Shown: positions 49,129-51,021 of the stretch, piece by piece
How positions within the stretch are numbered: the first letter of the stretch is position 1
Layout: every line of letters starts with the position of its first letter
Assembly (NCBI RefSeq): GCF_900114615.1
Contig: NZ_FOTS01000007.1
Span: forward strand, 62,001-126,000
Source: Pelosinus propionicus DSM 13327
Lineage (GTDB): Bacteria > Bacillota > Negativicutes > DSM-13327
Direction of reading: 5' to 3'
Length of the DNA stretch: 64,000 bases
Notes under the pieces: generated by a model
Seen by the model: the letters and a program-made list of their open reading frames with translations, nothing else
What the model was told of the DNA's origin: nothing
Database searches by the model: none
Translations under genes and position numbers: made by a program

Positions 49129-49313
49129 TAGACATTTTGGTGTTGAGCAAAAATATATAGCTTTATAAAAAAAATCAATGAATTGCTTTTTGCAGTTTGT
49201 TGATTTTTTAGTTTAATTGTATATAGTCAAATGCAGTTCAAAGAAATCCTTTCGATATAAATGTAGGATAGGAAAAAGCTGTACCTTCTCACGAGGGGTT
49301 AGGAGTGAGCATA

Positions 49314-50969
49314 ATGAGAATTAATAGCGCTATTGCGGATACGAATAAGGCTGCAAGTCAAAAAGATAATGTGACAAAGAAGAAGCCGCTATCACTTGTT
49401 TCTAATATAGAGACAAGTTCCTCAACATATGAAGATGCTGCCAAGGTGGAAATGTCTGAAGGTACAAAAAATAAGACAAGCCTACCAGCGAAAACGTTGG
49501 AAAATATACAAAACGGTGTTTCTTTGCTGCAAGCTGCGGATCAAGATTTAGATAAAATTCGTAGTATGCTTGAACGAGGAAAAGAATTAGCGGCTCAAGC
49601 GGCTACTTCTCAGGATGCAGCGGAAAAGGAAAGGCTTCAAAATGAAATTAATAATATAAATCATGAGATTGACAACTATAAAACTACTTACTCATCAGAT
49701 CCAAACAATGAAGAGATTATGACTGCCTTAAAGAGTGACTGGTTAGAAGTAGCAGAAGACGTTATTCAGGAGCGTTACGGGCTAGTCGGTGATGGAGCAG
49801 AATTGCAAATCGTACTGGATGAAGATTCTGTACCTTATCTTGCTGCGATCATGTACAACTACGATAAAGATGGCAAAGCAATTAATCAGACCATGCATAT
49901 TGCAGTTAAGAGTGCACTTCCAGCTGCTTTGCCTAATGGGGGAAGAGATCCTGGACAGTATGATGATCGTGTGGTTACTCATGAGATGGTTCATGTGCTT
50001 ATGGGGAGGACGATGAACTTTCAAGCGATGCCTAACTGGTTCAAAGAAGGAACTGCGGAATTCATCCATGGCCCTAATGAGAGGGTGGCTCTTGATTTGA
50101 AGCGTAGTGGTGGTGGAATGAAGGGCGCGACAGCACTCCAAGATGCTTTGGGTGATGGTACCAATAGTTCCTGGGAAAATACGAGTTTACATTATTCTGC
50201 AGCATCCATGGCAGTACGTTATTTACATACGAAAATAAAAGAAGATGGCTATAGCGGCGGCATAAAAGACTTGATGACGGACCTAAAGTCCAATCCAACG
50301 GAAAGCCTTGATCAGGCTTTGAACCATGTCTCTCGATATTCAAATGTGAAAGCATTTGTTAATGATTATGTTAAAAATGGGAATGGGGCTGCATTTATCC
50401 ATAATCTTGATGCAGCAGGTGAATTTAGAGCCTCTCTAGCTGGAGGAGATACTGGTGCTATAGGAGGTTCTACCGTTGATGGTGGTCCCGTTCAGACGGC
50501 AGAATCGGTAATTCCTGATATCAACCATCCAACGGAGACACCACTGGAAAACTTCCGTGTTATCTGGCCAACTCGCAGGGAAGATCCAATTCCATATCAA
50601 GCAAATAAAGCTGCTACGATTCAGAGTAGTACGGGAAATTACACACCTTTAAAAGTGGATAGCCATGTTCTTGGTACAGATCAAATCGATCTTGTTAATC
50701 ATTCTGATACAGCTAGCGCACTTTTTGATAAGGCCATATCTTATATTACCGATAAGCAAGCACAGCTTGGTGAGATTAAAAATAATTTAAGTAATCAAGA
50801 AAGTATCGTAGTTGAAAATGCAAATTCTTCAGCGATAACGGATTCTAATAGAGCCGAAAAAGAAGTGGAGCAAGTAAAGGCCAGTCTGGAGGGGACAAAC
50901 GCTAACAATGCGTCGAAGATAGCCAGATTACAGCCTGAGAGAGTATTACAATTGCTGAAAACTAGTTAA
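49314..50969 (+). CDS. Flagellin-like zinc metalloprotease (flagellinolysin-like)
   Basis: Protein of 551 residues. The N-terminus MRINSAIAD and the helix at 64-97 (IQNGVSLLQAADQDLDKI...ELAAQAAT) resemble flagellin D0/D1; residues 467-548 resemble the flagellin C-terminal D1/D0 helices and end with RVLQLLKT. Between them lies a gluzincin-like domain: zinc motif HEMVH (His223, Glu224, His227) and a probable third ligand Glu245 in NWFKEGTAEF. No signal peptide. This fits flagellinolysins, in which a protease fills the variable flagellin region, but the flagellin parts are divergent and no flagellar gene is adjacent. ATG 49314 follows AGGAG by eight bases. Confidence 0.75.
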   Translation: MRINSAIADTNKAASQKDNVTKKKPLSLVSNIETSSSTYEDAAKVEMSEGTKNKTSLPAKTLENIQNGVSLLQAADQDLDKIRSMLERGKELAAQAATSQDAAEKERLQNEINNINHEIDNYKTTYSSDPNNEEIMTALKSDWLEVAEDVIQERYGLVGDGAELQIVLDEDSVPYLAAIMYNYDKDGKAINQTMHIAVKSALPAALPNGGRDPGQYDDRVVTHEMVHVLMGRTMNFQAMPNWFKEGTAEFIHGPNERVALDLKRSGGGMKGATALQDALGDGTNSSWENTSLHYSAASMAVRYLHTKIKEDGYSGGIKDLMTDLKSNPTESLDQALNHVSRYSNVKAFVNDYVKNGNGAAFIHNLDAAGEFRASLAGGDTGAIGGSTVDGGPVQTAESVIPDINHPTETPLENFRVIWPTRREDPIPYQANKAATIQSSTGNYTPLKVDSHVLGTDQIDLVNHSDTASALFDKAISYITDKQAQLGEIKNNLSNQESIVVENANSSAITDSNRAEKEVEQVKASLEGTNANNASKIARLQPERVLQLLKTS

Positions 50970-50981
50970 AAATGGGTATAC

Positions 50982-51021
50982 AGATAAACTCCTGCAAGGA
51001 TAATCCTGCAGGAGTTTATCT
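50982..51021 (+). terminator. Terminator of the flagellin-like protease gene
   Basis: A perfect 15-bp stem (50982-50996 with 51007-51021) closed by a 10-base loop, 12 bases after the stop codon. Confidence 0.7.

What the first reader, a model, noticed from the sequence alone, without database searches (positions are those of the whole stretch)
49314..50969. Orphan flagellinolysin-like protease: a flagellin with a zinc protease in its variable region
Seen: flagellin-like helices at both ends (MRINSAIAD; IQNGVSLLQAADQDLDKI; ALFDKAISYITDK) and, between them, HEMVH (His223-His227) with NWFKEGTAEF 18 residues later. Established: flagellinolysins are flagellins that carry a catalytic metallopeptidase and assemble into proteolytic filaments. 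Inference: this copy is isolated from flagellar genes, its D0 helices are unusually divergent, and it has no signal peptide. It may be a minor filament subunit, or a flagellin-derived protease exported by the flagellar system for another use.
Basis: partly seen in the sequence, partly recalled or inferred. Interest (0 to 1): 0.82.

Follow-up and report, generated by a model that had tools for sequence, protein, structure and literature searches.

The report
Flagellin-derived protease that lost filament ends
In the anaerobe Pelosinus and several related bacteria, a known type of protein-cutting flagellin has lost both end segments that build the flagellar filament but kept its cutting domain and the chaperone-binding tip, so it is probably shipped out through the flagellum as a free enzyme instead of being built into it.

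Summary
The 551-aa ORF at 49314-50969 carries HEMVH (223-227) and E245, and scores 332 bits on NCBIfam's flagellinolysin model (cutoff 205). Its family is known (Nat Commun 2017), so a flagellin with a protease is not new in itself.

New here: this copy belongs to one well-supported clade (11 sequences, 100/100) from five Negativicutes families. In it both filament-core D0 helices have gone: N-D0 scores -4.7 to 0.7 bits, against 32-74 in other complete flagellinolysins. The protease domain stays under strong purifying selection (dN/dS 0.04-0.08 in Pelosinus). In the C-terminal region only the last nine residues (QPERVLQLL) are as conserved as the protease. In Campylobacter the last ten flagellin residues are needed to bind the export chaperone FliS. 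All 11 genomes encode FliS; 10 have FlhA, and the exception is 65% complete. A rare promoter-like block precedes the gene in 8 of 11 members. In Pelosinus it also precedes FlxA-like, Spo0E-like and small proteins.

Best explanation (about 0.55): a protease exported by the flagellar apparatus but not polymerised, like Campylobacter FlaC with an enzyme. Export and activity were not tested; AlphaFold was uninformative (pLDDT 34).

The parts
49314..50969 (+). CDS of the D0-less flagellinolysin-type protease, 551 aa
49227..49258 (+). Promoter-like block: two TTCAAA-type repeats 11 bp apart, then TTCGATAT (sigma28-like -10; TGCA 15 bp before it)
   Evidence: Conserved upstream of 8 of 11 clade members; rare genome-wide
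49314..49499 (+). Residues 1-62: polar N-terminal tail in place of the N-terminal D0 helix
   Evidence: N-D0 HMM -1.9 bits; 9-28% identity in ten-residue blocks across the clade
49500..49691 (+). Residues 63-126: remnant of the N-terminal D1 helices
   Evidence: N-D1 HMM 34.8 bits; PDB flagellins E 1e-7
49716..50573 (+). Residues 135-420: gluzincin-type metallopeptidase domain
   Evidence: NF033876, dN/dS 0.04-0.08, 65% mean pairwise identity across the clade
49980..49994 (+). HEMVH zinc-binding motif, residues 223-227
   Evidence: Invariant in A2
50046..50048 (+). E245, predicted third zinc ligand; A248 is the 'basement' residue
   Evidence: Invariant; matches E262/A265 of FliA(H) by motif order
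50634..50783 (+). Residues 441-490: remnant of the C-terminal D1 region
   Evidence: 28-49% identity in ten-residue blocks across the clade; end of the NF033876 match at 485
50931..50957 (+). Residues 540-548 QPERVLQLL: retained flagellin C-terminal tip, position of the FliS-binding end
   Evidence: 66% mean pairwise identity, highest 9-residue window of residues 425-551
50982..51021 (+). Inverted repeat after the gene (AGATAAACTCCTGCA ... TGCAGGAGTTTATCT), possible terminator hairpin without a clear T-tract
   Evidence: Seen directly in the sequence

Best explanation
It is a flagellinolysin-type zinc protease that derives from a filament flagellin, has lost filament-building ability and probably still leaves the cell through the flagellar type III export apparatus. 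The steps would be: late or special flagellar-type transcription from its own promoter (inferred); binding of FliS to the conserved C-terminal QPxRVLxLL tip (inferred from Campylobacter FliS mapping); export as an unfolded chain, its polar, probably disordered N-terminus acting as export signal (inferred); refolding outside as a soluble or loosely attached Zn/Ca protease that cuts extracellular proteins for food or competition (inferred from characterised relatives). Shown here: family assignment, intact catalytic motif under purifying selection, loss of both D0 segments once in a clade, retention of the tip, and co-occurrence with FliS and FlhA.
For: NF033876 332 bits with intact HExxH...E. 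Both D0 HMMs fail in all 11 clade members while the complete canonical flagellinolysins, from family f11 and two from outside the class, pass. Degenerate-D0 group is one clade, 100/100. Protease dN/dS 0.04-0.08; whole gene under constraint. C-terminal 9-mer as conserved as the protease (66 vs 65%), flanks 12-35%; deleting the last 10 flagellin residues abolishes FliS binding in C. jejuni (PMC5466977). FliS in 11/11 genomes, FlhA in 10/11, the exception 65% complete; 57/62 flagellinolysin genomes of the class are FlhA+ against 148/288 of the rest. No Sec-like N-terminus. Promoter block shared with FlxA-like genes; flxA is FliA-dependent in E. coli (PMC4183435).
Against: No direct evidence of export or activity. 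The known flagellin export signal region is part of what is lost (general knowledge). One member (L061/L093, f12) lacks the C-terminal tip and D1 altogether, so the tip is not needed by all. The f23 members have a weakened tip (QDPISVLHLI) and lack the promoter block. Spo0E-like, which shares the block, is not an export substrate. The generic sigma28 consensus is not enriched genome-wide and gave weak results on true flagellin promoters.
Confidence: 0.55

Rival explanations
1. Minor filament subunit: it still co-polymerises into the filament at low stoichiometry through its D1 remnants, as C. haemolyticum flagellinolysin does.
For: D1 remnants detectable at both ends; family precedent.
Against: Both D0 segments, which form the filament core in known flagellins (established knowledge), are lost in every member of the clade, and D1 is also weak (12.7-50 bits, -1.3 in L061, against 75-145 in complete canonical flagellinolysins).
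Confidence: 0.13
2. Not exported: an intracellular or lysis-released protease, for example for turnover of flagellin or in sporulating cells, since the same promoter block precedes a Spo0E-like gene.
For: No Sec signal, export signal region lost, Spo0E-like gene behind the same block.
Against: Relatives are surface enzymes; the chaperone tip is kept; tied to flagellated genomes. A broad cytoplasmic gluzincin would be dangerous without an inhibitor, and no inhibitor-like neighbour is conserved.
Confidence: 0.2
3. Exported by another route (non-classical, or a different secretion system), the flagellin parts being mere relics.
For: L061 keeps only the protease plus a new N-terminus; f12 and f23 members sit beside outer-membrane and secreted-type genes and an OmpR-family regulator.
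Against: Tip conservation and flagellar co-occurrence in the other lineages.
Confidence: 0.08
4. A decaying gene on the way to loss.
For: Five of eight Pelosinus genomes lack it.
Against: No stops or frameshift hiding D0; protease dN/dS 0.04-0.08; the state is shared by five families.
Confidence: 0.04

Closest known systems
Flagellinolysin / FlaMP (NCBIfam NF033876; C. haemolyticum FliA(H), H. gracilis HgrFlaMP)
   Same: Same protease domain with HExxH and the distal Glu; D1-like flanks; the H. gracilis gene also lies outside flagellar loci (PMC7643111)
   Different: Those have flagellin N- and C-terminal domains and, in C. haemolyticum, are the second most abundant filament protein; this clade has lost both D0 helices
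Campylobacter FlaC (secreted non-structural flagellin)
   Same: Flagellin-derived, not motility-related, secreted by the flagellar T3SS, binds FliS (PMC4863622, PMC5466977)
   Different: FlaC keeps D0-D1 and lacks most of D2-D3, with no enzyme; here D0 is lost and the central enzyme is kept, nearly the mirror image
Bacterial collagenase M9 and Peptidase_MA families
   Same: Related gluzincin domain; weak M9 match; own genome has a separate Peptidase_MA_2 protein (L005)
   Different: Sec-type or membrane proteins without flagellin parts

Membership tests
Flagellinolysin (NF033876) | Score above the curated model cutoff | tested here: met
   332.4 vs 205 bits, model 2-384 of 384
Flagellinolysin (NF033876) | HExxH plus distal Glu and basement Ala | tested here: met
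   H223, E224, H227, E245, A248, invariant in the clade
Flagellinolysin (NF033876) | Flagellin N- and C-terminal filament-core domains (D0/D1) on both sides | tested here: not met
   D1 partly present; D0 not detectable at either end (N -1.9, C 1.6 bits; canonical 32-74 and 45-74). So it is filed as a D0-less variant, not as a typical flagellinolysin
Flagellinolysin (NF033876) | Proteolytic activity | not testable with these tools
   Only inferred from motif conservation
Flagellinolysin (NF033876) | Assembles into the filament | not testable with these tools
   Loss of D0 argues against it
Flagellin (Pfam Flagellin_N / Flagellin_C) | Above Pfam cutoffs at both ends | tested here: not met
   Flagellin_N 22.4 of 26.6 bits, no Flagellin_C reported; some clade relatives pass Flagellin_N, through D1 only
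Flagellar T3SS cargo (FlaC-like) | FliS-binding C-terminal tip | tested here: inconclusive
   Tip sequence conserved, binding not tested; lost in L061
Flagellar T3SS cargo (FlaC-like) | FlhA-dependent secretion | not testable with these tools
   Only co-occurrence with FlhA and FliS

The most novel reading that the evidence does not exclude
Negativicutes have turned a proteolytic flagellin into a soluble enzyme exported by the flagellum, within a small regulon of non-structural flagellar cargo (FlxA-like, Ser/Thr-rich repeat protein, 46-52-aa proteins with similar Met-x-Ile-Ser/Asn-type N-termini) marked by a shared promoter block.
Probability: 0.33. Interest if true: 0.75.

Novelty: new variant of a known kind. 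Interest (0 to 1): 0.55.

Why it matters
Why some flagellins are exported but not assembled is an open question for FlaC (stated in PMC5466977). Here evolution appears to have removed the filament-core helices and left the chaperone tip and the enzyme, which would separate export from polymerisation and show the flagellum serving as a plain secretion system for a protease in environmental anaerobes. The claim is testable in Pelosinus fermentans JBW45, which has a complete genome and an 88% identical copy. It would also warn that the database name 'flagellinolysin' does not always mean a proteolytic filament.

Tried and rejected
AlphaFold2 with a two-sequence alignment (only window and L035 sequences are allowed): pLDDT 34, no use, so no fold search was run. 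Hidden D0 in another frame: none convincing. Generic sigma28 consensus scan: not specific. A relaxed promoter pattern with 2 mismatches was not clearly enriched over its control (40 sites against 35 in the control); only the exact sites and the first, stricter pattern (18 against 2) are informative. Viral contigs: no close relative, one distant stand-alone protease. Gene neighbours: no partner or inhibitor conserved across the clade. Literature: no paper found on this clade; the discovery paper's main text names none of its genera that I searched for.

Full report
What is there. The ORF from ATG 49314 to stop 50969 encodes 551 aa. It matches NCBIfam flagellinolysin at 332 bits (cutoff 205) and solved flagellins over its N-terminal part, but falls below the Pfam Flagellin_N cutoff with no Flagellin_C match. 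HEMVH 223-227, E245 and A248 fit the zinc ligands and basement residue described for C. haemolyticum FliA(H).

Host and setting. The closest named copy is in Pelosinus fermentans JBW45 (88% identity); G001 has the same length as that chromosome, so the window's genus is Pelosinus (GTDB). Three of eight Pelosinus genomes carry the gene, in the same gene order. The genome has FlhA, FliS, flagellin, FlgK, FlgL, FliW, FliD and FlaG on other contigs. The gene's neighbours are unrelated to motility, so it is positionally isolated, but in a flagellated organism.

A clade without D0. In 350 genomes of the class, 62 have a flagellinolysin over cutoff. Those examined from family f11 and two from outside the class (L119, L120) have normal flagellin ends. 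HMMs built here from the same organisms' ordinary flagellins score complete canonical flagellinolysins 32-74 bits for N-terminal D0 and 45-74 for C-terminal D0. The 11 relatives of the window gene score -4.7 to 0.7 and -4.3 to 14.9 (L122 in that table is a wrongly cut ORF and is not counted). A tree of the protease domain alone puts these 11 in one clade with 100/100 support, beside canonical L120 and L119. Loss of D0 therefore most likely happened once, after the protease was already in a flagellin (the root was placed by midpoint). The D1 helix region persists in ten of eleven (12.7-50 bits). No D0 is hidden in another frame.

Selection. Among the three Pelosinus copies dN/dS is 0.04-0.08 in the protease, 0.12-0.33 in the N-terminal tail, 0.11-0.13 in D1-N, and 0.18-0.50 in the C-terminal parts (Nei-Gojobori, short regions, rough). 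The enzyme is what is being kept.

The C-terminal tip. Across six representative sequences of four families, residues 540-548 (QPERVLQLL) reach 66% mean pairwise identity, equal to the protease (65%) and the highest 9-residue window of residues 425-551, while blocks between 491 and 540 are 12-35%. This corresponds to the very end of flagellin. In C. jejuni, deletion of the last ten residues abolishes FliS binding, and FliS is vital for secretion of the non-structural flagellin FlaC (PMC5466977). FliS is present in all 11 genomes. The exception is L061, which has lost D1 and the whole C-terminus.

Link to flagella. FlhA is found in 10 of the 11 genomes, the missing one being 65% complete. In the class, 57 of 62 genomes with a flagellinolysin over cutoff have FlhA against 148 of 288 others (counted; Fisher p 5e-10; relatedness is not corrected for).

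Promoter. 56 bp before the ATG ends a block TCAAATGCAGTTCAAAGAAATCCTTTCGATAT (49227-49258) that is conserved upstream of the gene in Pelosinus and in f27, f32 and f12, but not in f23. A strict pattern finds 18 sites in seven genomes against 2 for the reversed control. In Pelosinus the other conserved sites precede a Ser/Thr-rich 284-aa protein with a FlxA-like gene behind it, a Spo0E-like gene, and 46-52-aa proteins without Sec signals. The -10-like CGATAT is shared with the Pelosinus flagellin promoter TAAT-N15-TACGATAT, and in this gene TGCA lies 15 bp upstream of it, which is sigma28 spacing with a poor -35. FlxA is FliA-dependent in E. coli (PMC4183435). The 11-bp repeat spacing would also fit an OmpR-type regulator, and such a gene lies near the protease in f12 and f23. 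Which factor acts is open. The similarity of the N-termini in this gene set was noticed after the fact and not tested.

Mechanism and status of each step. Shown: protease family, intact motif, constraint, single-clade loss of D0, tip conservation, flagellar co-occurrence. Inferred: transcription with flagellar genes, FliS binding, flagellar export, extracellular proteolysis. Not tested: enzyme activity, secretion, structure (AlphaFold pLDDT 34).

Compared with what is known. Proteolytic flagellins are established (PMC5595980, PMC7643111). The variant here breaks one defining feature, the filament-core domains, so it should not be filed as a filament flagellinolysin. It works most like Campylobacter FlaC in proposed route and like flagellinolysin in chemistry. 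Verdict: new variant of a known kind, moderate to good interest.

Noticed in passing
L185, L188, L056 (family f11 genomes): Flagellinolysin genes with normal D0 occur side by side as tandem or duplicated copies with diverged protease domains.
   Followed up: partly
L184, L186, L187 (family f11 genomes): The same protease domain (HELTH) sits near the N-terminus of giant open frames of 1317-3465 aa without recognised flagellin ends; many more are listed.
   Followed up: partly
L153:5893-6633: A contig from the viral collection encodes a stand-alone 246-aa relative of the protease domain between large repeat-rich genes.
   Followed up: no
L005:1459-2334 (own genome, C38): A separate Peptidase_MA_2 protein with an N-terminal hydrophobic segment, related to the flagellinolysin protease domain.
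   Followed up: no
L012 (Pelosinus G007, C57): A flagellin with a different large insert, apparently repeat-like (perhaps a beta-propeller), another unusual central domain in the genus.
   Followed up: no
L157, L158, L159, L177, L178, L183: Promoter-block genes in Pelosinus: Ser/Thr-rich repeat protein plus FlxA-like, and 46-52-aa proteins such as MAIPAINENINSLYYTNLQKKN..., possible flagellar cargo.
   Followed up: partly
L093:10403-18098 and L099:3-8461: In f12 and f23 the protease gene lies in a conserved set of small secreted-type and outer-membrane barrel-type proteins, an acyltransferase-like hexapeptide protein and an OmpR-family regulator.
   Followed up: partly
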